A model generated the notes under the pieces. That model was given only the letters and a program-made list of their open reading frames with translations, did no database searches and was not told where the DNA came from. A DNA stretch of 64,000 nt from the IMG/VR virus record IMGVR_UViG_3300027881_000011, positions 1 to 64,000 of that record, one strand, 5' to 3'. The DNA comes from a virus. The translations under genes were made by a program, and so were the position numbers. Positions 32,553 to 49,140 of the stretch are shown here, one piece after another; the first letter of the stretch is position 1, and each line of letters begins with the position of its first letter.

Positions 32553-35500
32553 GTGTCAGTACCACAGGAGAAGATCGAGCAGGCGCTTGAAGCTGCTCGC
32601 AAGGACGGCAACTCCGCAGCTGTAACTGAGCTTGAGGAAATGCTGGGTGGTGTTCGGCCAACCCCGTCTGAGGGGGCGGCGCTTTCTGATCAAGGGGCGT
32701 GGCAAGAGGACATTCTGTCTGGTGAGGCGAGGTCCAGACTAACTGCTGGTGATCCAGAGGGTGGGATTGGTACACCACCTGAGCAGGAAGGCGCACTATC
32801 AGATCGACCATCCCGAGAGCCACCACCGATTGAAACCGACGAGTTCGGTACTGGGTTATCTTTTCCAGAGATGACGCCCGAGCAACGTACAAGGCGTATG
32901 GCGAAGAACCAGTACGACTGGGATAAGGCATGGATGGATGATCCGAAGTCGGAACCGACTCGGGAGCAGCAGAACGAATTCATGAAAGAAAACACCGACT
33001 GGCGCTTCGGCTATGGTCCGAATGATTATATGGGTCGTCAGGTCATTCTTGATCAAGAGACCGGCGAACCACGTTGGAGCGCTCTGTCTCCGCAGCAAAT
33101 CAGTCAGGTTGAAGAGAAGGAAAAGAAGAGGGGCACCACCACTAAAGCCTCTATGGGTGCCTTGGGGTTTGGCATCATTCGTCCGGCTGCAAACATTGCA
33201 CAAGGCGTCGATGCAGACATCGACAGGTTGAATGATTTTCAGCGCTTCTTATTTCATGAGAAGTTACCCCAAGCAGAAAAAGATCGCATCAGTGAGCTGA
33301 TAGTAGATGAGTACGGTAAGGACAGCAAATACGTAGAGGATATCGGCAAACTGCCAGCGAACAAGCTGCGCGAATACATCGAGATGAACCCGGAGAACGA
33401 GAACGTCTTCGAGAACCTCTCTGGTGACGAATGGTGGGAGCAGCGCAAAGAGTTCGCAGCCAGACTGGCTGGCCGACTTCTTGGTCGGGGAGCGTTCCCG
33501 GTTCCAACACCTATGTTCGGTGCGGATGATCCGGGCGGCGCATTGATGGGTCGTGAGGCTTTTCAGGGCATTGAATACGAAGGCGACAAGGTAGCTCCAG
33601 CTTATGCTGGTGCATCAGAAGATGTTCGTGACTGGCTATCAGAGGCCAGCCATACCGAAAGCATCTATGAAAGCATTGTCACGCCGCTCCTGACCACAGA
33701 CGAAGGCGTTCAGCCCGGTGATCGGTTGATGGAGCTTGCCAACAAAGTTATTGAGAAAACATACACCGAAGAGCAGCAGGCTGAACGCAGACTGCCGTTC
33801 TTCTCGGAAGACGTGAAGGTCCATACAGTCTGGGATTTATTTAACTCTGACCTGTACAACGACCCAAATACCAAGCTGCCATGGAATAACTTTGAGGCGT
33901 TCGCACTGACGTTCTTCGAGAGCACTCCAGAGATGGCATTGAGCATGGGTGTTACTCGTGGTCTGGGTGGTCTGGGTGCCAAGACGGCGATGAAAGAAAC
34001 AGTTGGTCAGACCATCGGCCAGATTGATAAGACCCGGCGCTTGTATGCTGGGCGTTATGGTTTGATTGGTGGCAGTGGTACGGAAGGTATGTTCGTTGCC
34101 AATGCCGTTGAGTCTGAAACCAGAGACACACTCAATGAGGTGTCGATGGATAAGTACCGAGAAGACCCATTGTTCAATAACATGGTTGACGGTGGCATGA
34201 CCGAAGAGGCGGCGAAGCAGGTGCTGGTACAGGATGCCGCCAACATTGCTTCCACGATGTCGTTCGTATCTACGGTGCTGGTGAGCGGACCGATGAACAC
34301 TTTCATTGGTAGGAGCGCTGTCGGTCGCGTTATCAAAGATAAGAATGCATTACGACGTTCGGTTGGGATGCTGGGTGAGCCGGGGTCTGAAGGTCTTCAG
34401 GGTCTGGGTGAGCAACTGGCAACCGAGATGGGCGTGGTGCGCATCGACCCAGAGAATCCTATTTTTGATAATCCGAATCGATACCTCGAAGCATTCGGTG
34501 GCGAGGCAATGGTCGCTGGTCCGTTCGGGTTTGCGGCAATAGCAGAACCAAGCAAGCCTGTTGGTATCAATGAAGCTGATGTGGAAGTCGCTCGTGCTAC
34601 AGAGACGTACATGCGAGCCACCAATGATCGCTTCAAGTGGCAGACCAAGATCAGCGATCCAGAGCATATCGCCAACACGACACCGAACGAACGACTGACT
34701 GAACTGGAACAGCTGGAGACTCTGCAAAAGGTGGAAGCAAGGTCGCTGCTTGATGCCGAACCAGTGATGCGTAAACACTTGGAACAGCAGAACACGGAAG
34801 TCGCGAAGACCGAACTGAAGATGCTGGGTGCATTAAAGATGCGCGCCAATGCAGTACTCAACGATATCGCTGTTGCGAAGTCACGACGTGTTACTGCTGG
34901 TGAGGTGCAACAGCAGGAACAACAGATCGTCAAGGATCGTTACGATCTTCAGAAGCGCGTTAATGAGAACGTGCTGAAGCTCGATGATCTGGAGCGCATG
35001 AGCGGCGCGATAGAAACCATTCAGGATCAGGGCGTAGTCGATCAAGCAACTGAGACCGAACTGATAAAGGAAGGCTACGCGAGGCGCACCGATGAGGGTC
35101 AGATGGTCGTATTGCCGAAGGGTAAACGAGCGCTGAAGGAACTCAACAGGCAGGCACGCGGACTCCAAGATCGTCTGGAGAAGGGCTACATCGGCACTGA
35201 GAAGCGCGATCCACTAAACCTGATCAAGCGCGAGATGATTGACAATGTTGGTCCAGTCGAACGCGAGAAAATCTTGCATGAAGACCCACTGACCGGGACA
35301 CAGAATCGCAGGGCATTCAATGAGCGACAGGAGAACATCGACGTTCGTGAAGGCGAGACCGCAAAGGTCATTGAGAATCCAGCTCCAGCCGTAGCGGTGG
35401 TGGACGTGGACTCATTGGGCTGGGTGAACGACAACATGTCTCACAGCGCCGGGGATCGACTGCTACTCGCTGTATCAGACGCTCTGAGCGAGCAGAAGGG

Positions 35501-38500
35501 CGTAGAGGTGTTCCGCGTCGGTGGCGACGAGTTTGTGGTCACAGGGGCGTCTCAGGAGCAGCTGGAGACGGCTATGCAGGCAGCGGCTGCCAAGCTATCT
35601 GAGACTGAGGTCGCAGCTGGTGAGGACGCTGTAACACCACAGATTACGTGGGGCAAGGGCAAGACCTATGTCGAGGCCGATGCCGAGGCAATCACCATGA
35701 AAGATGAGCGCATTGCTCGTGGTGTAGTTGCCAAGAAAAAGGAGAAGGCAGCAACGTACAGGGTCCGCTCTCAGGAAGCCCTGTTCCAGAAAGGCGACGA
35801 GCTGGTCCTGACCAACTGGAGAAAGGCCAGAGACTTCGTTGAACGTGGTGACAGTGTAGAGGTGCTAACACCTGATGGCGCAGTGCAGGGCGTGGTCACG
35901 AACGTGACGAACAAGCGTGGGCGTCCACGTGTGAAGGTTAATGTGCAGGGCAGAGAATTTACTTTCAATCCAGAGCTGAATCACCTGATTATCAATGAGA
36001 CGTTGGACCGGGCAGACCTTGCATGGATCACTGGTGATGCTGAGTACGCGCAACCCGGTCGAGACACGTTCCCGCAGACGCTCTCTGATGTGCAGATAGG
36101 GCACATGGGCAAGGATGGTGTCTGGTATGCCGATCTTGCTGTTGAGCCTGAGTACGTTGATACAACGCCAGAGCCGTGGTGGTGGGAGTCCTATTCTGAC
36201 CTGAACTTCGACAGGAAGGTGTTCATGGCACCGATGCTGCCGAAGGCGACGCAGGAAGAGATCAGTCGAGCTGATGTTGTCAGGGAAACCATCACCAACG
36301 GCTATAGCAATCTGCCGCCGATCCACATGGTTACCGATATCGCGAAGCTCCAGCGCGAATCGCCAGAGATCGTCAAACAGATCAGGGCGGAAGGTGCATC
36401 CATGACCGGTGTTCGAGGTTACATGGATCACCTTAATCCAACGAACGGCATCTATATATTCGTACCCAACATCTACTCGATAGCTGGATCACAGAACTTC
36501 GAGCAAGGCGTTGCCGAAACCATCATGCATGAGCTGATTGGTCACTACGGTGTTCGTGGGTTCTTCAGGAACGAGGCAGACCTGCGTGTCGAGATGCATG
36601 GCATCGTTGATGATTTCCCGAAACTGGCGAAGCACTATGCTGGCAGGCTCGGGCTGGATATAAATGACCCGAACGCCAAGCAGCTGCTTGGTGAAGAGAT
36701 GGTGGCGTATCTCGCAGGCGAAGTAATGTCAGGCACCATCGACATGACGCCACGACAGAAGACGCGCTGGCAGCGCCTCATGGACTGGGTGAAGAAAGCC
36801 ATCAGGACAATGGGTCTGGATCGCTGGTCAACACTGAAAAAGATGTCTCGTGAAGACATCAACGACACGAAGAGTGAGTTCTGGAATGACGAGCGCATCG
36901 TAGACCTGCTCTCCAGCGCACAGGACTTTGTGCGTAATGGTCCTGCGTTCGAGTGGGTGTCCAAATACGACACGGCACAACCGTACATGCGTGATGCCGA
37001 CATCTTCCAAGCAGGACTGATCACAGCGATTCATACCGCAGATAAGAAACTTACTGGTCAGGAAAAGAAACAACTGGTAGAGCAGGGCAAGTATCCAGAC
37101 AAGGCGTCTGTGCCAAACGAGATGCCGATGTTCCCTGACCGCGCCTCGCCAAACATCTACAAGCAAGCAATCATCAATGCGAAGAAAGCAGGTTATATGA
37201 CAGATCGCGAGATCACCATGTCAGGGCTGGACCCAGACGGTGACTTCTATCTGTTCCGTGACGCATCGTATGGCACGTTGCAACGCTACTTGGCACAGAT
37301 GAACGGTGATCATGTCGATCCTGATTGGTACAGGGACGTATTGCCAGAGCATCTGGTGAAAGAGCTGGATGACATTCGTGCTGCGCAGTTGAAGAACCAC
37401 ATTGTTGGTCCATTAAAACCGACTGGTCAGGACGGTGGTTACGATGGTGATGCTGTTGTCTATCAGTACGATGAGAGGCCATCGCTGAACAAGGTGAGCG
37501 CGGAAGCTATGCGCGAACGTATTGCCGAAATCATGGCGATGAAGATTGAGCCAAAGAAGACACAGATGACCAAGGAGATGCTGCTGGCGCACATGGTCTC
37601 TGAGAATGCGTATCGAGTCTTTGTTGAGAAGCAAGGCAGGCACCCAAAGATTTCGCAGAGGCAGGCGTACGAAAAGCTGTATGGACCGCTGGAAGAGCAA
37701 GACATCTTCGTGTCTGCAACAGCCACAGAGGAACAGAAGAAGGAGATAGCAGACGAGATACAGCGCACCAGAGAGCGTGGTTATGATATTGGCTTTGATG
37801 CCGAACAAGATCGCTGGCTCGACTGGGCGGCACACACAACGGAGTACTCTGAGTGGTCACCACAAGGTTCTCGATACACGAGAGACTTCCGTGTTGCCTT
37901 AATAAAGACCACTGGCGGTGGCACTTCGATGGGCCATACCGGTCACTATGATCCGAACCTTATGCACATCAGAACTGGTGAGGCAGAGCTGCTTGAATGG
38001 GACGAGATGCCAGAGTTGACGTTCCCGAACCCAAAGATGCAAGGCAAAATGCTGTCGCTCATCGAGCTTCAATCAGATTGGCTGCAAAAACTACGTAAGG
38101 GTTTTTCGAGCCAAAATGAAAGACGAGACTCAGAGGAAAAGTATAGGGAGAACCTCTCGCTTCTGAACACAGTCGGTGACCAGTTTGGTCGTGGCGTTGC
38201 TGAAGATGTTTGGAAGGTGCTTGATTCAGTGTTGACGCCGATAGCCAATTTGCCGGACGGCAGAAGCCCGCTGGAAGGTGGTGGTTTGATGCCGGGGCTA
38301 CGGGAGCGCGCCAGAGAAGAGCTTGGACAAGCCTATGAAGACCTGACAGCTGATCAGAAGCACGAGCTGTGGAAATCACACATGGTCGATGAGCTGGACA
38401 AAGTGAAGTCTCGCTGGGATGACGCTGACGCTTATTTACATGGAGTGTTGGAAGCGCTGCCGAAGCTGGGTGATCTACCGGGCTCCATGGATGTTCGTGG

Positions 38501-41500
38501 CTTCGATACGCTGGATGCTATTGCCATGCGTCGTGCTACCACGGTATTAAGGAACGAGCTGTCCAAAGCCACTGACACGATGCAAAATACTTTTCGTTAT
38601 GCGGCGAACCAGACAGAGCTGGTTGAGCAAATTCAGCTGCTCAAAAACATCTTCGGTAAGAGATTGCATCAGCTTGCCACCGATGGTGATTATGGTGACG
38701 GCAGACGCTTACCGATGATCGAGTACCGGTTGGCTCCAATGCTGACAGAGGTGTACAGCATCCTTGGTGCAGACACCAACCATATCTCTGAGTTGATGTC
38801 TGGGCTTCAGTCACGCGAGATGGCTACCGTGCGCGTGCCACTTCAGGCTGTGAAAGACTTGAATCAGGCAATGACCGCATCCTTCACGCCTTATGATTTG
38901 GTGAAAGAGATTGTCGCGGCAAGTCGTATCAGCAGGCACGGTGACCTTGCGCCCGGAGCGCTTACCTTGACGGTTGGTAATGCTGGTGACGAGTTCATCG
39001 ATATCAAGGTGGTTGGCAATAAAGCGGACGTTGCCAAGGCAGAGCAGCTCGTACCGAAACTGATCAAGACGTGGATTGAAAACCATGCTGCCGACAAGTT
39101 GCGCATCAACACACAGAACCGCGAGCAGCGAACCCTCAGTGATGATGTGCAGGGAGATTACGAGTTTTCCGAATTGGAAGATGCATATGGCCTCGAAGAA
39201 CACGACACAGATTCATCAAGTTCAGAACTCAGCGATTACGGGGTTGAGTCGTTCGAGGAATATGAAGAAAGCACCCTTCCCGAGATCGAATCAGAGATTA
39301 TAAATGATGCTTTCGAGAATATAACAGAGTCAGAGTGGGACGACCTCGAAGCAGATAATGAAGGCGTTAGCAGGGAAGGCAATACGTACCGCGACGCTCT
39401 CGTCATTGATGATGATGGTGATGTAGACAACCAAACGGCTGAAGACGAACTGAGAGATGCGCGTGATGAATACCGTCAAGTATTGTACGAAGACGACGAT
39501 CTGCGGATGCAAGCCTACGATCAGGTTCGCGAGCAATGGCACGAGCGCGGAAAAACCGGACTGGTCACTGGTGACATTCCTATCTTGTGGGATGACGACG
39601 GTGATCCAATAGACTATGTGGCAGTCGTGATCATCGCCAAGAACCCCGGTGACTCGTACGATCTTTTGATCAATGGCGACGAAGTTGATTACGACTCCGA
39701 CTACGATGACGCGAAGGAGTTGTTATCAGCCGCCATCCTTGACTACTACCAGAATGAAAGCATTCGTCCACCACATGGAGCGCTGTTTGGACCAGACGCA
39801 CCACCCGCACCAGCAACAGATTTTCGACTGACAGCTCAGGAAGGCCCAGAGGCTGGACCGAACTGGGGAATCGCTACCGGTAACTTGGTCGAGAACCTGT
39901 CGATGATGAGTGACGCTACTCAAAAAATGGACAAGATATTTAATGAGACGGTGACGCTCGGCAAGAGAATCTCGAATGCAGGCGTGCATGTGGAGTCACC
40001 GCTGTCGAGAGACGAGCAATGGCGTCCACTGGCACTGAAGTACCTGATCGCAGACGCAGTGCGTCGCGGCATGGGCGGTGTGATGTGGAACAACGGGCTG
40101 TCATCTTCTACTCGTGGTGGGATCGGTATGCACGATGTTGTTGCCACATCCCGTATAGGCTGGACCAAAGAAGAGATATCACTGCGTGGTGAGCCGCAAG
40201 AGGTTTACATCATTCGCTCCGCAGACATGGGCAAGCCTATCGCTGTCAGCAAGAGTGGCATGGTGTCTATGCTCGGTCGTGACGTTACGCGCATCATCAA
40301 TTTGCAGGAAGCCGGAAAGCTGGAGAGCCCTGATGTTGTAAGTAGCGAAGTCGAACAGGGCGATGAAGTCCCACGAGACAGGTACATCATTGCAACAACA
40401 GAAAGCGGCACGCAGGCGCTGTATCGTCGCAGCGATAATTCTTTCTTGGGATTCCATTCCGACAACGCTGGTATTGATCAGGCGATTCAACAGGACATGG
40501 AGCATTACGGGCGTCCAAAGATAGCGGCAACAGAAGACTTGCCGACAGCTGAGCCGCTTGGTCCGGTAACCGCATCAGGAATCATCGATTCCGATATGGC
40601 TGGCGGCCTGATTCACGTGATAACTGGTAAACGTCCATCCGGTTATACGGATACGTTCTCGAATCCATTGTTGGCTGGTGCGCGTAAGTCATACGAAGAC
40701 ATCATGGTTCGCCTCTGGAACAAGGAGTTGAAAAAGTTTGGCGTGCATATCAGTGAAACTTACGTCAAAGCCAAGAACATGAAAAAGGCTCAGCAGGAAG
40801 AGGGCCAGCCCACCATGAAGTCACCCACTCGTGACGAGCAGATCGCTGAGAAACATGGTCGTCTTTATGTTGCAGAGTTGACTGGTGAGATGCACGGCTG
40901 GGTAGTTATGAGTGAAAAGATCGGACCAGTAGTCAATGACGTGTGGTCCGATAAGTCGCAGGCCGACAGAAAGCTCACCCAGTATATTGATGACAATTTT
41001 GGTTCTGATCGTGAAGGCGTCAAGGTCTTGTATTTCCCGATCACCGATGAGATGCGGGAAGAGTTCAGTGGGCCTACCGCACCGTTCCACTATGACCCAA
41101 CACAAGACCCGGTACTGAAACAGGCAGCGAAGAAATTCGGTTACACGAGAACACCGCTACGCGAGCGCTACAAAGCATTCAAGGACGCCTTTGGTGCAGA
41201 GTTCATACAGGGCGCTCTCGATCAGTTCTATGGTTTACGTCGCGCTTTGAACAACGCTGATGTTAGCGATGGTTCATACATCAGCGCACGACTCACAACC
41301 TCGCTCGACTCGATGATGAAGGGAATACTGGAGTACGGTCACCCAGTCTGGGAAGAGGGAATTGTTTCCAACCAAGGCAAAGGGTTACTGGAGATACTGC
41401 AACCGATCCTGAGCGACCCCAGCACGTGGGGCATGTACATGGCTGGCAAGCGAGCGAAGCGCCTCATGCTCGAAGGCTACGGCAATCTGGAACCAGAAGC

Positions 41501-44420
41501 ACGAGCATGGATAGATGCCGCAGCCGACACGCTCGACAATCCAGATCACATGGAGAACGTGTTCGAGATACTGTCGCGCTTCCACGAAGGCGCGTTGGTG
41601 AATCACCGTGAGGTGCAGGCAGGTGACCTGACCAAGGCAGAACGTGATGCGCTAACACCACTGGAACGCAAGTACTGGGATAGTGGTTTCCTCGCTCATG
41701 CCAAACGCAAGAACATCAAAGTCAGGAATGCTCCGAGAGGGCGCTGGCAGATATTCGATTGGCGCGTTGTTCTTTCTGACAACCCACAGAAGAACATCGA
41801 TAACAAATATGCAGCGGGCACGAAATGGCTGAAGAGAAAAGGCGTGAAGACCGACGCCGAGGCTCGGGTCATCATGGACAAACTGACTGATCTCGCGCTG
41901 AAGAAACAGGAGCAAGCGAACACCCGGCGACAGGCCAGAGTCGATGCAGGTAAGTCCGCAGAGAAGCTCATCGCTGGTGGTCGGGAGCATCTGTTCAATC
42001 CCAGTGAGATAAGGGGCATGGTTGCGCTCGGTGACAAATTCGGACACTTCGAGCGAGTGGCGAAGGACTATGCTGAGTTCAACAAGAAGATGCTGGACTT
42101 CGGTGAGGCATCAGGAATCATTGATCCAGAGACGCGGCCCATGTGGGAGAACGCCGACTACGTGCCGTTCTATCGCGTGGACGACGAGCGACTGACGGCA
42201 TCCGGCTTGTCACCGACATCGGGTATTGCCAATCAGCGAGCGCCGATCAAACGCTTGCATGGCGGCAAGAACAACATGGGTGATGTGGTCAACAATATCC
42301 TGATGAACATCACCAAGATCGTTGATGCTTCCGTGAAGAACAACGCGGCACTGGAAGCTGTTGATGCGCTCCGTGGTTCCGGCATCGTTTCCAAGCAGCC
42401 AATGGACTGGAAGCCAGAGCTGATTCCAATGACACAGGTGGAGAAGGCACTGAGGGATCGTGGTGTCATCGTGCCGGACGATCAGGAAGGCGTACATATG
42501 AGCGACATTCCGGCAGAGGCACTGACCGGGATGCAAAAGATGTTTGCGATCAAGGCGCCTTCTGGTCCGGGTGTCATCAGCGTTATGCGTAACGGCAAGC
42601 GCGAGTACTACTACACCGATGACATGCTGCTGTATCGGTCGCTAACTGCGTTGAATAAGAAAGCGTTCGGCAGGTGGATGTCATTGTTCAGAGGGCCGAA
42701 GCGACTACTCACTGAGTGGATCACTATCGATCCGGCATTCATGATTGCCAACTTCCTTCGCGATACCGGCTCTGCTTACGTCATTGGCAGAGATGGCAGC
42801 AAACCAATCCTTTCCGCAGCAGCTGGCTTCTATTCAGCGATCACTGAAGATGAAGCTATGCGTACTATGGTCAGTGCAGGGGCCGCGTTCGAGAATGGGT
42901 ACATCACTGGTGGTGATCCGAACGCCACGAGGAAGATGCTCAGGGCGGCAATGAAAGACCCGACCTTTGTGCAGAGCGTTCTGGACTCACCACTAAAACT
43001 CTATCGGGCATGGAAGCACATGGGCTCGGCCATCGAGAACGCGAATCGTATCGCTGTGTATAAAGCAGCGCGACGTGCAGGCAAATCGAAGAAACGATCC
43101 GCTTATGAAGGCAAAGACCTCATGGACTTTTCCATGGGCGGCGACTGGGGTATCACGCAGTTCTTGATGCAGACAGTACCGTTCATGAATGCGCGTGCGC
43201 AGGGTAACTATCGTCTTGCTCGCGGCGCGGCAGACAACCCACGTTCGTTCGCCTTCAAGGGCTTCTTGGTCGGTCTGGCTGGCATGGCTCTGTACTTGTC
43301 ATTCAAGGATGATGAGCGCTACAAAGAGCTGGAAATGTGGGACAAGCAGACGTACTTCCACTGGTGGATTGGTGATGTTCATTACCGGCTGCCGAAGCCG
43401 TTCGAGGTTGGTGCGATCTTCAACACGATCCCAGAGATGATGATGGAGTACATCAACTCTGAAGAGAACGACGCAGGGAAAGAACTGCTGCGTGGTTTTG
43501 GACATATGGTTGGCGAGACGTTCTCGATGAACCCGGTACCACAAACAGTGAAGCCGCTGACGGAGACTGCGTTCAATTACAATTTCTTCACCAAGCGCCC
43601 GATAGTCAGCTACTACGAGAGCAAGCGAAAGCCACCGGAGCAGTATCGTTACCGCACCAGTCCCACCATGATAGAAATGGCTCGCGCTTTGCCGCCTGAA
43701 CTGGATGCCGTGAGTGGCAAGATCAGATCACCGCTGCATCTTCAGAATCTGTATTCGGGGTACACCGGTACGCTGGGTCGTTACTTCCAGATGGTTGCCG
43801 ATGCTGGAATGAGACGCGGCCTTGAGTACCCGCTACCACCATCATGGGAAGACCGCGACTATCCTGTTTGGGGCAGGTTTGTGCGCGGCGATGACCCGGA
43901 GCGTAGGACAAAATACGAAAGTGAAGTCTACCGGATGCTCGACAAGGTGACTGCTATTCAGGGCTCGTTGAACTTCCTTGAGAAGACCGGGCAGATAGAT
44001 CAGTACGCAGAGTTGTACGAAGAGGACATGCCATACATCCGTATCGCGAAGCCGCTCGAATCGATCCGTGAAAACATCCAAGAGGTCAACAGGGCGATCC
44101 AGTTGATCTACCTGTCACCAGACATGGAGCCTGATACGAAGCGAGAAGAGATCAATCAGCTCGAAGGTTCTCGCAACATGCTGTTCAAGGAAGCCTACAA
44201 GTTACGACCGGGTGGTGAGTACAACCTTGGTGAGGAAGAAGTCACGAGGCTCGACATGATTGATCTCATTGATCAGTTTGGGGTCGATGACTCGACCGCT
44301 TTCATGCGTCGCATACAAGAGGACACTCCAGACACCTACGAGCTGCTGGAGATGATTCAGAACGACATGGCAGCACGTAACCTTAACTCGCTCGCAAGAG
44401 CATCGAACGAACCGGAGTAA
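32553..44420 (+). CDS. Giant polyvalent virion protein (GGDEF, HExxH, LPD-type modules)
   Basis: 3955 residues; GTG start at 32553. From N to C: a Pro/Glu-rich start; a long helical region with hydrophobic patches; a coiled coil (about 700-870); a complete GGDEF domain (about 908-1050) with DPLTGTQNRR, VVDVDSLGWVND, HSAGD and FRVGGDEF but no RxxD inhibitory site; an SH3-like segment near 1110-1180; a zincin motif HELIGH (1326-1331) followed by GEEMVAY; a polyvalent-protein domain with LIELQSDW (1833) and LALKYLIADAVRRG (near 2492); a very acidic insert (2190-2326); and a C-terminal LPD38-like region (about 3400-3650). Polyvalent proteins of this kind are injected with DNA to counter host defences. 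Confidence 0.8.
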   Translation: MSVPQEKIEQALEAARKDGNSAAVTELEEMLGGVRPTPSEGAALSDQGAWQEDILSGEARSRLTAGDPEGGIGTPPEQEGALSDRPSREPPPIETDEFGTGLSFPEMTPEQRTRRMAKNQYDWDKAWMDDPKSEPTREQQNEFMKENTDWRFGYGPNDYMGRQVILDQETGEPRWSALSPQQISQVEEKEKKRGTTTKASMGALGFGIIRPAANIAQGVDADIDRLNDFQRFLFHEKLPQAEKDRISELIVDEYGKDSKYVEDIGKLPANKLREYIEMNPENENVFENLSGDEWWEQRKEFAARLAGRLLGRGAFPVPTPMFGADDPGGALMGREAFQGIEYEGDKVAPAYAGASEDVRDWLSEASHTESIYESIVTPLLTTDEGVQPGDRLMELANKVIEKTYTEEQQAERRLPFFSEDVKVHTVWDLFNSDLYNDPNTKLPWNNFEAFALTFFESTPEMALSMGVTRGLGGLGAKTAMKETVGQTIGQIDKTRRLYAGRYGLIGGSGTEGMFVANAVESETRDTLNEVSMDKYREDPLFNNMVDGGMTEEAAKQVLVQDAANIASTMSFVSTVLVSGPMNTFIGRSAVGRVIKDKNALRRSVGMLGEPGSEGLQGLGEQLATEMGVVRIDPENPIFDNPNRYLEAFGGEAMVAGPFGFAAIAEPSKPVGINEADVEVARATETYMRATNDRFKWQTKISDPEHIANTTPNERLTELEQLETLQKVEARSLLDAEPVMRKHLEQQNTEVAKTELKMLGALKMRANAVLNDIAVAKSRRVTAGEVQQQEQQIVKDRYDLQKRVNENVLKLDDLERMSGAIETIQDQGVVDQATETELIKEGYARRTDEGQMVVLPKGKRALKELNRQARGLQDRLEKGYIGTEKRDPLNLIKREMIDNVGPVEREKILHEDPLTGTQNRRAFNERQENIDVREGETAKVIENPAPAVAVVDVDSLGWVNDNMSHSAGDRLLLAVSDALSEQKGVEVFRVGGDEFVVTGASQEQLETAMQAAAAKLSETEVAAGEDAVTPQITWGKGKTYVEADAEAITMKDERIARGVVAKKKEKAATYRVRSQEALFQKGDELVLTNWRKARDFVERGDSVEVLTPDGAVQGVVTNVTNKRGRPRVKVNVQGREFTFNPELNHLIINETLDRADLAWITGDAEYAQPGRDTFPQTLSDVQIGHMGKDGVWYADLAVEPEYVDTTPEPWWWESYSDLNFDRKVFMAPMLPKATQEEISRADVVRETITNGYSNLPPIHMVTDIAKLQRESPEIVKQIRAEGASMTGVRGYMDHLNPTNGIYIFVPNIYSIAGSQNFEQGVAETIMHELIGHYGVRGFFRNEADLRVEMHGIVDDFPKLAKHYAGRLGLDINDPNAKQLLGEEMVAYLAGEVMSGTIDMTPRQKTRWQRLMDWVKKAIRTMGLDRWSTLKKMSREDINDTKSEFWNDERIVDLLSSAQDFVRNGPAFEWVSKYDTAQPYMRDADIFQAGLITAIHTADKKLTGQEKKQLVEQGKYPDKASVPNEMPMFPDRASPNIYKQAIINAKKAGYMTDREITMSGLDPDGDFYLFRDASYGTLQRYLAQMNGDHVDPDWYRDVLPEHLVKELDDIRAAQLKNHIVGPLKPTGQDGGYDGDAVVYQYDERPSLNKVSAEAMRERIAEIMAMKIEPKKTQMTKEMLLAHMVSENAYRVFVEKQGRHPKISQRQAYEKLYGPLEEQDIFVSATATEEQKKEIADEIQRTRERGYDIGFDAEQDRWLDWAAHTTEYSEWSPQGSRYTRDFRVALIKTTGGGTSMGHTGHYDPNLMHIRTGEAELLEWDEMPELTFPNPKMQGKMLSLIELQSDWLQKLRKGFSSQNERRDSEEKYRENLSLLNTVGDQFGRGVAEDVWKVLDSVLTPIANLPDGRSPLEGGGLMPGLRERAREELGQAYEDLTADQKHELWKSHMVDELDKVKSRWDDADAYLHGVLEALPKLGDLPGSMDVRGFDTLDAIAMRRATTVLRNELSKATDTMQNTFRYAANQTELVEQIQLLKNIFGKRLHQLATDGDYGDGRRLPMIEYRLAPMLTEVYSILGADTNHISELMSGLQSREMATVRVPLQAVKDLNQAMTASFTPYDLVKEIVAASRISRHGDLAPGALTLTVGNAGDEFIDIKVVGNKADVAKAEQLVPKLIKTWIENHAADKLRINTQNREQRTLSDDVQGDYEFSELEDAYGLEEHDTDSSSSELSDYGVESFEEYEESTLPEIESEIINDAFENITESEWDDLEADNEGVSREGNTYRDALVIDDDGDVDNQTAEDELRDARDEYRQVLYEDDDLRMQAYDQVREQWHERGKTGLVTGDIPILWDDDGDPIDYVAVVIIAKNPGDSYDLLINGDEVDYDSDYDDAKELLSAAILDYYQNESIRPPHGALFGPDAPPAPATDFRLTAQEGPEAGPNWGIATGNLVENLSMMSDATQKMDKIFNETVTLGKRISNAGVHVESPLSRDEQWRPLALKYLIADAVRRGMGGVMWNNGLSSSTRGGIGMHDVVATSRIGWTKEEISLRGEPQEVYIIRSADMGKPIAVSKSGMVSMLGRDVTRIINLQEAGKLESPDVVSSEVEQGDEVPRDRYIIATTESGTQALYRRSDNSFLGFHSDNAGIDQAIQQDMEHYGRPKIAATEDLPTAEPLGPVTASGIIDSDMAGGLIHVITGKRPSGYTDTFSNPLLAGARKSYEDIMVRLWNKELKKFGVHISETYVKAKNMKKAQQEEGQPTMKSPTRDEQIAEKHGRLYVAELTGEMHGWVVMSEKIGPVVNDVWSDKSQADRKLTQYIDDNFGSDREGVKVLYFPITDEMREEFSGPTAPFHYDPTQDPVLKQAAKKFGYTRTPLRERYKAFKDAFGAEFIQGALDQFYGLRRALNNADVSDGSYISARLTTSLDSMMKGILEYGHPVWEEGIVSNQGKGLLEILQPILSDPSTWGMYMAGKRAKRLMLEGYGNLEPEARAWIDAAADTLDNPDHMENVFEILSRFHEGALVNHREVQAGDLTKAERDALTPLERKYWDSGFLAHAKRKNIKVRNAPRGRWQIFDWRVVLSDNPQKNIDNKYAAGTKWLKRKGVKTDAEARVIMDKLTDLALKKQEQANTRRQARVDAGKSAEKLIAGGREHLFNPSEIRGMVALGDKFGHFERVAKDYAEFNKKMLDFGEASGIIDPETRPMWENADYVPFYRVDDERLTASGLSPTSGIANQRAPIKRLHGGKNNMGDVVNNILMNITKIVDASVKNNAALEAVDALRGSGIVSKQPMDWKPELIPMTQVEKALRDRGVIVPDDQEGVHMSDIPAEALTGMQKMFAIKAPSGPGVISVMRNGKREYYYTDDMLLYRSLTALNKKAFGRWMSLFRGPKRLLTEWITIDPAFMIANFLRDTGSAYVIGRDGSKPILSAAAGFYSAITEDEAMRTMVSAGAAFENGYITGGDPNATRKMLRAAMKDPTFVQSVLDSPLKLYRAWKHMGSAIENANRIAVYKAARRAGKSKKRSAYEGKDLMDFSMGGDWGITQFLMQTVPFMNARAQGNYRLARGAADNPRSFAFKGFLVGLAGMALYLSFKDDERYKELEMWDKQTYFHWWIGDVHYRLPKPFEVGAIFNTIPEMMMEYINSEENDAGKELLRGFGHMVGETFSMNPVPQTVKPLTETAFNYNFFTKRPIVSYYESKRKPPEQYRYRTSPTMIEMARALPPELDAVSGKIRSPLHLQNLYSGYTGTLGRYFQMVADAGMRRGLEYPLPPSWEDRDYPVWGRFVRGDDPERRTKYESEVYRMLDKVTAIQGSLNFLEKTGQIDQYAELYEEDMPYIRIAKPLESIRENIQEVNRAIQLIYLSPDMEPDTKREEINQLEGSRNMLFKEAYKLRPGGEYNLGEEEVTRLDMIDLIDQFGVDDSTAFMRRIQEDTPDTYELLEMIQNDMAARNLNSLARASNEPE

Positions 44421-47607: not shown

Positions 47608-47956
47608 TGCTTGGTCCTACCGTTATTGGTGGTGGTCGTGGTATTTCGGCATTTAACGGTCGCCACATGTGCAGACAGTATGGGTGATAGTTGATGTGGT
47701 CTGACTTCGGAACGAACAACTGCATCACGCAGTCCTCTTCATCCCAGAACAGGTCTTTCGCCCTGACCATATCCTCGTAGGTCGGCATACGGCTCTTGCG
47801 GCTGACGCTGACGTGTTCCCACTCCAGCCCATCACTGATGACCAAAAACAACCCATCGGGGAAAGAGAAGGCACCGTTTCGGTGGTTGCCCTTCTCAAAC
47901 CCCGCTGGGTGAATGCGGTATAGCTCCGCTGGTCTTGAAGCGTGGAGACCCATCAC
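47600..47956 (-). CDS. Phage protein of the WEHVSVS family (DUF7694-like)
   Basis: 118 residues. Contains the conserved block LEWEHVSVSRKSRMPTYEDM, then KDLFWDEEDCVMQLFVPKSD and YHPYCLHMWRP. I recall this block from many phage and prophage proteins now grouped as DUF7694; no activity is known. The His/Trp-rich conserved core suggests a small enzyme or binding fold. Overlaps both neighbours in the operon. Confidence 0.65.
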   Translation of the reverse strand: MMGLHASRPAELYRIHPAGFEKGNHRNGAFSFPDGLFLVISDGLEWEHVSVSRKSRMPTYEDMVRAKDLFWDEEDCVMQLFVPKSDHINYHPYCLHMWRPLNAEIPRPPPITVGPSNG

Positions 47957-48384
47957 TTTTTCTCTTTGATTTCCTTGATTTCCTTGGTGATCGCCATGGA
48001 TACATCGGGCAACCGCTTCAGAATCTGACCGTACATCGCCTTCATCTCGTCGCCGCGCTTCTCCAGTTGGTTCTCCAGTTTGTCGCGGTACTTGTCCTTG
48101 ACCTTGGCGATGCCATCGTCCTTCTCTCTCGCGGCCTTACGTTCTGCCGCAGAGACACGCTTGTCGGCATCGAGGGCGACAGACTCTTCGCGCATCTTTA
48201 ACTTGTGCGCGATCATCTCTTCGTCCATCTGCTTCTTCTGTCTCAGCTCTTCGTTTTCAGAACCAAGTTTGGCGTTCTCGTCTTGAAGGTTGTCTCGCAC
48301 CTTGGTAAGCACCAAGCAGCGATCTTCCAACTGCGTGATGCGTTTACCGAGCTGCGCGGCTCGCTTCTGGTTGAATCCGAACAT
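47953..48384 (-). CDS. Coiled-coil protein
   Basis: 143 residues starting at ATG 48384, which has AAGGAG eight bases upstream; an earlier ATG at 48408 lacks one. The sequence is a nearly continuous charged coiled coil (Lys/Glu/Arg/Ala heptads, residues 10-120). The start lies inside the 3' end of the upstream gene (41-base overlap). May be a scaffold or adaptor for the early proteins; function unknown. Confidence 0.6.
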   Translation of the reverse strand: MFGFNQKRAAQLGKRITQLEDRCLVLTKVRDNLQDENAKLGSENEELRQKKQMDEEMIAHKLKMREESVALDADKRVSAAERKAAREKDDGIAKVKDKYRDKLENQLEKRGDEMKAMYGQILKRLPDVSMAITKEIKEIKEKK

Positions 48385-49060
48385 TGCTTTCTCCTTCTTT
48401 TGCGACATACAGCCGCCTGTAGTTATAGCGAGCGACGGGGTTGTACTCAGCCATCTTCCCGTACTCCAGTTTGGTGGCTGCGTACAGCGCCTCTGGAGAC
48501 TGGTCGATGAACCGGCGCACTACGCTGACAAAACCATAGTTCGATTCGTCAACCTGCCACTGCTCAACATCGGTCAAGCCAATTATTCTGGCCTCACCAA
48601 CCTCGCTGATGAACATCCCTGTGTAGAACCCACTCAGCTCATTCCATTCAATGAACTGGTCGGCGTTACACCAGATGGTCGTCAGCTGCTTCTTACTCAA
48701 CAGGTCAGCCATGTCGTCATCGACAACATAACCAGTGGTCATGTCGCGGACGTACTCATAGTCGAAGCCACCTTGGTAGCTCGAATATGCCTTCACACCA
48801 CCCGTCTTGGCAGCAGGCGGAATACTTTCAAACGGCTTGCTGATGGGGGTTGGTTTTGGCTTCTTGTCGAATTGCCCTACGGAAAAGAGACCTCTCGGGG
48901 TGCCGTGCCCCATCATAACGATGTGGTTGTGCGCCTCGATAGCCTTTATGACCCCTTCCTTCGTGCCGCTATTGATGGCGGTGATGTTCTCACGGCCAGC
49001 GTAAATCGGCTTCAGGAAGTCGGTACTCTTATCTTTCGGATGTATTACAAGTGTCTTCAT
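48344..49060 (-). CDS. Caspase/CHAT-fold-like protein of a mobile-element family
   Basis: 238 residues. Begins KTLVIHPKDKSTDFLKPIY. The motifs HIVMMGHGTPRGLF (His after a hydrophobic strand) and TTIWCNADQFI (Cys after a hydrophobic strand) have the order and spacing of the His-Cys dyad of caspase-fold peptidases (CHAT, gingipain type). I recall similar 'vIHPkD..TdFL...GHGt..GL...iWCNAd' proteins from phages and Bacteroidetes elements, of unknown function. It is the first gene after a strong promoter at 49.1 kb. The AGGAG lies 15 bases before the ATG, longer than usual. Confidence 0.6.
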   Translation of the reverse strand: MKTLVIHPKDKSTDFLKPIYAGRENITAINSGTKEGVIKAIEAHNHIVMMGHGTPRGLFSVGQFDKKPKPTPISKPFESIPPAAKTGGVKAYSSYQGGFDYEYVRDMTTGYVVDDDMADLLSKKQLTTIWCNADQFIEWNELSGFYTGMFISEVGEARIIGLTDVEQWQVDESNYGFVSVVRRFIDQSPEALYAATKLEYGKMAEYNPVARYNYRRLYVAKEGESNVRIQPEASRAAR

Positions 49061-49092: not shown

Positions 49093-49140
49093 AGACACTA
49101 TTATAGATGGCCTGCCGGTGGAAGTCAATGCCAACGGCAG
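49093..49140 (-). promoter_or_regulatory. Strong sigma70-type promoter with inverted-repeat operator
   Basis: On the minus strand: -35 TTGACT (49123-49128), 17-base spacer, -10 TATAAT (49100-49105). The -35 lies between two 10-base half-sites, CTGCCGTTGG (49131-49140) and CCACCGGCAG (49112-49121), related by inverted symmetry with one mismatch and 9 bases apart. The outer half-site touches the stop codon of the SSB gene. It should drive the caspase-like gene and the rest of the block down to 46.3 kb under repressor control. The same geometry recurs at 63.4 kb. Confidence 0.8.

What the first reader, a model, noticed from the sequence alone, without database searches (positions are those of the whole stretch)
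48344..49060. Phage-encoded caspase/CHAT-fold-like protein under a strong early promoter
The GHG and WCNAD motifs give a His-Cys pair in the caspase-fold order. A peptidase, or an inactive mimic, expressed first in an early operon may act on host defence systems that use CHAT or caspase-like effectors.
Basis: partly seen in the sequence, partly recalled or inferred. Interest (0 to 1): 0.72.

Follow-up and report, generated by a model that had tools for sequence, protein, structure and literature searches.

The report
Phage-borne caspase-fold protease family
This virus of bacteria carries an optional gene for a small protein predicted to be a caspase-like protein-cutting enzyme, from a family common in phages and absent from the protein-family databases searched, so it is a good candidate for a weapon in the conflict between phages and bacteria.

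Summary
The ORF at 48344-49060 (-), 238 aa, is real: it is conserved at the same site in related phages, under purifying selection (dN/dS about 0.1-0.2), and preceded by the best sigma-70-like promoter in the window, which relatives keep. Two template-free AlphaFold2 models (window protein; an insert-free relative, pLDDT 97.7) superpose best on clan CD peptidases: SAVED-CHAT (Z 12.3), gingipain, separase, caspases, legumain. His52 and Cys131 follow strands beta-3 and beta-4 and are invariant in 56 relatives; Cys131 is the protein's only cysteine. An inactive mimic is therefore unlikely. No Pfam, PHROGs, NCBIfam or PADLOC model matches. The family is mostly phage-borne (78 viral contigs; distant Lak megaphage copies). 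In this phage group it is an optional cassette after ssb, missing in close relatives. Rare chromosomal members sit beside AAA+, vWA or RtcB genes. Distant cousins form the fourth gene of a Dcm methylase - paraMORC - receiver operon. Best reading: a compact, probably active cysteine endopeptidase used in phage-host or phage-phage conflict. The target, the activity, early timing and counter-defence specifically are inferred. New family (variant) of a known fold.

The parts
48344..49060 (-). ORF of 238 aa, caspase/CHAT-fold (clan CD-like) protein; the subject of the finding
48905..48907 (-). codon of predicted catalytic His52 (GHG motif after strand beta-3)
   Evidence: invariant in 56 of 56 relatives; strand E46-51 in the model
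48668..48670 (-). codon of predicted nucleophile Cys131 (WCNAD motif after strand beta-4), the only Cys of the protein
   Evidence: invariant in 56 of 56 relatives; strand E125-130 in the model
49022..49042 (-). HPKDKST (residues 7-13), loop after beta-1 with invariant His7, Asp10, Thr13; possible substrate (S1) pocket
   Evidence: invariance; pocket role is inference from clan CD topology
48593..48607 (-). SEVGE (residues 152-156), loop after beta-5 with invariant Ser152 and Glu156; possible pocket residues
   Evidence: invariance; pocket role is inference
48737..48856 (-). disordered insert (residues 69-108), present only in this phage group; other members lack it
   Evidence: pLDDT under 50; alignment
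49100..49128 (-). promoter-like site TTGACT-17 nt-TATAAT, about 40 nt before the ATG
   Evidence: kept in L003, L009, L020, L021
49141..49578 (-). SSB gene, upstream neighbour of the cassette
   Evidence: Pfam SSB E 1.2e-38; same place in relatives
47953..48408 (-). coiled-coil protein, downstream neighbour; follows SSB directly in L171, which lacks the peptidase gene

Best explanation
The gene encodes a compact, single-domain cysteine endopeptidase of the caspase/CHAT (clan CD) fold. Cys131 is the nucleophile and His52 the general base, at the ends of strands beta-4 and beta-3; invariant acidic residues near the predicted pocket (Asp10, Glu156) suggest cleavage after a basic residue. It is an optional phage cassette with its own sigma-70-type promoter, inserted after ssb, and it most likely acts in trans by cutting a host or rival-element protein during infection (counter-defence or exclusion of competitors). 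Shown by computation: fold, dyad conservation, purifying selection, optional presence, conserved promoter. Inferred: catalytic activity, P1 preference, timing, target.
For: Fold: the insert-free relative has pLDDT 97.7 and pTM 0.91. The VIA rows for it are clan CD structures plus the unexamined DdvA chain 8rw5, covering residues 1-182; the top row is SAVED-CHAT 8tl0, Z 12.3, 155 aligned, 2.9 A; then RgpB 10.7, separase 9.8, caspase-3 9.7, legumain 9.6. The window protein itself gives the same order, with flavodoxins at 7.5. Foldseek on the relative: caspase-4, E 9.3e-4, probability 0.99. Dyad: H52 and C131 invariant in 56 sequences and kept in the distant Lak phage copy and in the chromosomal cousins (profile alignment E 2.3e-12). 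Gene: dN/dS 0.08-0.21; promoter conserved. Optional cassette: absent from the same site in L169, L171 and L173, whose RecT is 61-73% identical. Conflict context: cousins in two genomes are the last gene of Dcm methylase - double-HATPase paraMORC-like - receiver-like operons, a locus type tied to restriction-modification in PMC8011034.
Against: Plain Foldseek is ambiguous: the window model has no hit below E 0.001, and for the relative a flavodoxin scores as well as caspase-4. Profile comparison with CHAT gave nothing, and with C14 only 10% probability, although GHG lined up with GHG. No atomic distance was measured. No substrate, no defence gene seen beside the phage copies, no expression data; no neighbour gene shared across the diverse phages lies close enough to be an obvious partner.
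Confidence: 0.6

Rival explanations
1. A caspase-fold protein without peptidase activity: a decoy or adaptor that binds host CHAT/caspase-like effectors or their substrates and blocks them.
For: Inactive clan CD homologues exist (c-FLIP is among the structural matches); a phage decoy would fit a conflict role.
Against: His52 and Cys131 are invariant in 56 sequences down to about 30% identity and persist in Lak phages and cousins; a decoy would not need both.
Confidence: 0.12
2. An active peptidase that defends the infected or lysogenic cell against other phages (superinfection exclusion or abortive infection), not one that disarms the host.
For: Optional cassette with its own promoter, the usual layout of phage accessory genes; cousins sit in Dcm-paraMORC-receiver operons that look like cellular defence; chromosomal members beside AAA+, vWA and RtcB genes.
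Against: Many carriers are large phage contigs of 100-400 kb and Lak phages of about 550 kb, probably lytic; no sensor partner was seen beside the phage copies.
Confidence: 0.25
3. A non-peptidase alpha/beta (flavodoxin-like or other Rossmann-type) protein whose conserved His and Cys have another role.
For: A flavodoxin is the top Foldseek row for the core model (E 8.8e-4).
Against: Full-length structural alignment puts clan CD folds at Z 9-12 over 140-155 residues and flavodoxin at 7.5 over about 116 residues for the window model, with no flavodoxin among the top 50 rows for the core model; the GHG and C positions match the clan CD catalytic layout.
Confidence: 0.06
4. A processing peptidase for the phage's own proteins (for example virion maturation or polyprotein cleavage).
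For: The phage encodes a 3955-aa polyvalent protein that might need processing.
Against: The gene lies in the recombination/SSB block, not with structural genes, and is missing from close relatives that keep the neighbouring block.
Confidence: 0.08

Closest known systems
SAVED-CHAT protease (type III CRISPR, PDB 8tl0)
   Same: Best structural match of both models (Z 11.9 and 12.3); caspase-like fold with His then Cys
   Different: Only the peptidase domain is shared; no SAVED sensor domain, no CRISPR locus, about 10% identity, no sequence-profile match to CHAT PF12770
Csx29 / TPR-CHAT of Craspase (PDB 8eex, 7y84)
   Same: CHAT-type domain superposes (Z 9.1)
   Different: No TPR region, not tied to gRAMP or a guide RNA; phage-borne
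Gingipain RgpB (peptidase family C25, PDB 4ief)
   Same: Second-best structural match; clan CD dyad
   Different: No propeptide or Ig-like domain; short phage protein; no detectable sequence kinship
Caspases and metacaspases (Peptidase_C14), separase (C50), legumain (C13)
   Same: Same predicted core fold and His-Cys order; Z 9-10
   Different: No Pfam C14 or C50 match at threshold; compact core of about 180 aa; WCNAD in place of the QAC-type motif
MTase - HEF_HK - Response_reg_2 loci (PMC8011034) and paraMORCs (PMC2292703)
   Same: The chromosomal cousins sit as a fourth gene beside Dcm methylase, a double-HATPase paraMORC-like protein and a receiver-like protein
   Different: PMC8011034 contains no mention of a peptidase in its text; the phage gene has none of these partners

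Membership tests
Clan CD cysteine peptidases (fold level) | Caspase-hemoglobinase alpha/beta/alpha fold | tested here: met
   Two AF2 models; Z 9-12 to CHAT, C25, C50, C14 and C13 structures over most of the domain
Clan CD cysteine peptidases (fold level) | Catalytic His after beta-3 and Cys after beta-4, in that order | tested here: met
   H52 follows E46-51 and C131 follows E125-130; same in the core model; both invariant
Clan CD cysteine peptidases (fold level) | His and Cys side chains within reach in space | not testable with these tools
   No coordinates returned; neighbouring strand ends imply proximity
Clan CD cysteine peptidases (fold level) | Peptidase activity dependent on the Cys | not testable with these tools
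   Needs bench work
CHAT (Pfam PF12770) | Match to the curated model | tested here: not met
   No Pfam hit for the window protein nor a CHAT hit in any of 56 members; profile comparison gave no meaningful alignment
Peptidase_C14 (caspases, PF00656) | Match to the curated model | tested here: not met
   No Pfam hit; profile comparison only 10% probability, with GHG aligned to GHG
Separase (Peptidase_C50, PF03568) | Match to the curated model | tested here: not met
   One member at E 0.12, not significant
Gingipain (Peptidase_C25) | Match to the curated model | tested here: not met
   No Pfam hit although the fold matches at Z 10.7
Known anti-phage defence or annotated phage protein family | Match to PADLOC or PHROGs models | tested here: not met
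   No hits
Phage accessory cassette (moron) | Own promoter and optional presence at a fixed site among close relatives | tested here: met
   Conserved promoter; gene missing between SSB and the next genes in L169, L171 and L173

The most novel reading that the evidence does not exclude
A family of compact clan CD proteases, spread over phages from mid-sized genomes to megaphages, derives from or shares ancestry with the peptidase gene of Dcm - paraMORC - receiver loci, and phages use it to cut components of bacterial (protease-based) immunity or to run a stand-alone version of that immunity against rivals.
Probability: 0.3. Interest if true: 0.82.

Novelty: new variant of a known kind. Interest (0 to 1): 0.58.

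Why it matters
Caspase-like proteases are known as effectors of bacterial immunity (Craspase, SAVED-CHAT). Here a caspase-fold family is carried mainly by the phages, has no model in the searched family libraries, keeps its catalytic dyad, and has distant chromosomal cousins in a restriction-modification-like operon. That makes a direct test possible: does a phage caspase-fold protein cleave defence proteins, or serve as a mobile immunity effector? It also suggests a possible protease component for some paraMORC/receiver loci.

Tried and rejected
Single-sequence searches gave nothing: Pfam, PHROGs, NCBIfam, PADLOC and PDB sequences, annotated phages and plasmids. A profile search of the PDB gave only chance hits. 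Plain Foldseek on the window model was uninformative, probably because of the disordered insert; on viral models nothing convincing. Profile comparison with CHAT and C14 alignments built from Bacteroidota genomes did not reach significance (a first attempt had unoriented sequences and is discarded). A search for a recurring neighbour across diverse phages found only local synteny among related phages. Fusion partners in L077 and L079 have no Pfam match. Literature searches found no description of this family; the held library is partial. Considered and set aside: virion protease, flavodoxin-like enzyme, inactive mimic.

Full report
What is there. The window is a virus record of 67,782 bases. 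On the minus strand runs a block with genes for a Ro60/TROVE protein, a RecE-like (YqaJ) nuclease, a RecT-like protein, SSB, then the gene in question, a coiled-coil protein and a DUF7694 protein. The gene (48344-49060, 238 aa) starts with ATG about 40 nt after a TTGACT-17-TATAAT site. That site is the best sigma-70-type match in the whole window (11 of 12; next best 10) and is conserved in related phages L003 and L009 with identical boxes, and in L020 and L021 with near-identical ones. The general scan found no excess of promoter-like sites (5 found, 6.3 expected), so conservation, not the match alone, is the argument.

A family without a name. The protein matches nothing in Pfam, PHROGs, NCBIfam, PADLOC or PDB sequences. 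Relatives were found in 78 viral contigs and 10 genome contigs. A 56-member alignment has 14 invariant columns at a mean column identity of 33%: H7 D10 T13 L16 Y20 G51 H52 G53 G57 W130 C131 M149 S152 E156. Members other than this phage group are about 180 aa; this group carries an insert of roughly 40-110 residues between the GHG hairpin and strand beta-4. No member matches a Pfam or PHROGs family at a meaningful level. Distant copies occur in all nine Prevotella phage Lak-B genomes and in an unverified faecal phage clone; the Lak copy keeps GHG, WC and the S...EA motif although its first strand loop differs. Only one of 295 other sampled Bacteroidota genomes had a match, so the family is mostly phage-borne in the collections searched.

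Fold. AlphaFold2 without templates gave, for the window protein, a core with pLDDT near 95 and a disordered insert at 69-108, and for the insert-free relative L026 a pLDDT of 97.7 and pTM of 0.91. The strand order places His52 right after beta-3, followed by a short strand (GLF), and Cys131 right after beta-4, as in clan CD peptidases (topology of clan CD from general knowledge). VIA-align ranks clan CD structures first for both models: SAVED-CHAT Z 11.9 and 12.3, RgpB 10.4 and 10.7, separase 9.8 and 9.8, caspases 8-9.7, legumain 9.6, Csx29 9.1, MALT1 9.4. For the window model the first other fold, flavodoxin, has Z 7.5; for the core model no clearly different fold appears in the top 50 rows, the DdvA chain 8rw5 being the one row not examined. 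Foldseek alone is ambiguous: caspase-4 at E 9.3e-4 (probability 0.99) ties with a flavodoxin.

Active or mimic. The dyad is invariant across the family, C131 is the only cysteine of the window protein, and dN/dS is 0.08-0.21, with the core more constrained than the insert. This favours an active enzyme over a mimic. Invariant acidic residues in the loops after beta-1 (Asp10) and beta-5 (Glu156), where clan CD enzymes hold pocket residues, suggest preference for a basic P1 residue; this is inference.

Optional cassette. Phages with a closely related RecT (61-73% identity) show the same gene order but lack this gene: in L171 SSB is followed directly by the coiled-coil gene, and L169 and L173 carry other short ORFs there. 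The tree places the window clade (100/100) with two Bacteroidota genome sequences nearby (97/84), with several long branches elsewhere. The gene thus behaves as a mobile accessory gene.

Chromosomal kin. L010 and L015 have a related AAA+ ATPase gene (31% identity to each other) directly upstream; L011 has a third copy of that ATPase family nearby; L098 (the region of L016) lies among AAA+, vWA, RtcB and NUDIX genes and L014 beside a vWA gene. A remote cousin found in genome G094, with a second copy in G311, is the last gene of a four-gene operon: Dcm-type methylase, a protein with HATPase_c_3 and HATPase_c domains, a receiver-like protein, then the cousin. The profile alignment of the family with these cousins has E 2.3e-12 and 97.7% probability and aligns GHG with GHG and Cys with Cys. 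Loci of methylase, HEF_HK ATPase and Response_reg_2 are described in PMC8011034 as restriction-modification-associated; its text does not contain 'caspase', 'CHAT' or 'peptidase'.

Function. The most likely role is a protease acting in trans in phage-host or phage-phage conflict. Counter-defence, competitor exclusion and host shut-off cannot be told apart with these data. Early expression is suggested by the neighbours (recombination genes) but not shown. The best-explanation confidence of 0.6 covers an active clan CD peptidase in a conflict role; fold alone about 0.9, activity about 0.75.

Noticed in passing
window 54540-54657 (-), beside ORF 52857-54482 (-): A full-length but sub-threshold Rfam YrlA (Y RNA-like) match (36.4 bits, gathering 69, E 5.7e-5) lies directly upstream of a phage Ro60 gene (TROVE E 2.3e-40, Ro60 vWA E 7e-58): a likely phage-encoded Ro60/Y RNA pair.
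   Followed up: partly
window 32553-44420 (+): A 3955-aa polyvalent-type protein holds a GGDEF (diguanylate cyclase) domain at residues 909-1034 (E 8e-10) and an LPD38 domain.
   Followed up: no
L097 3272-8354 (+) and L103 7043-12126 (-): A conserved four-gene operon in two Bacteroidota genomes: Dcm methylase, double-HATPase paraMORC-like protein, receiver-like protein without a Pfam match, caspase-fold cousin; in L103 the ATPase reading frame looks split.
   Followed up: partly
L010 2289-3977, L015 2344-3984, L011 1-1438: AAA+ ATPases of one family sit next to the chromosomal caspase-fold genes; directly upstream in L010 and L015.
   Followed up: partly
L079 5746-7170 and L077 5344-6525: Two phage members have long extra regions (C-terminal about 215 aa, N-terminal about 200 aa) without a Pfam match.
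   Followed up: no
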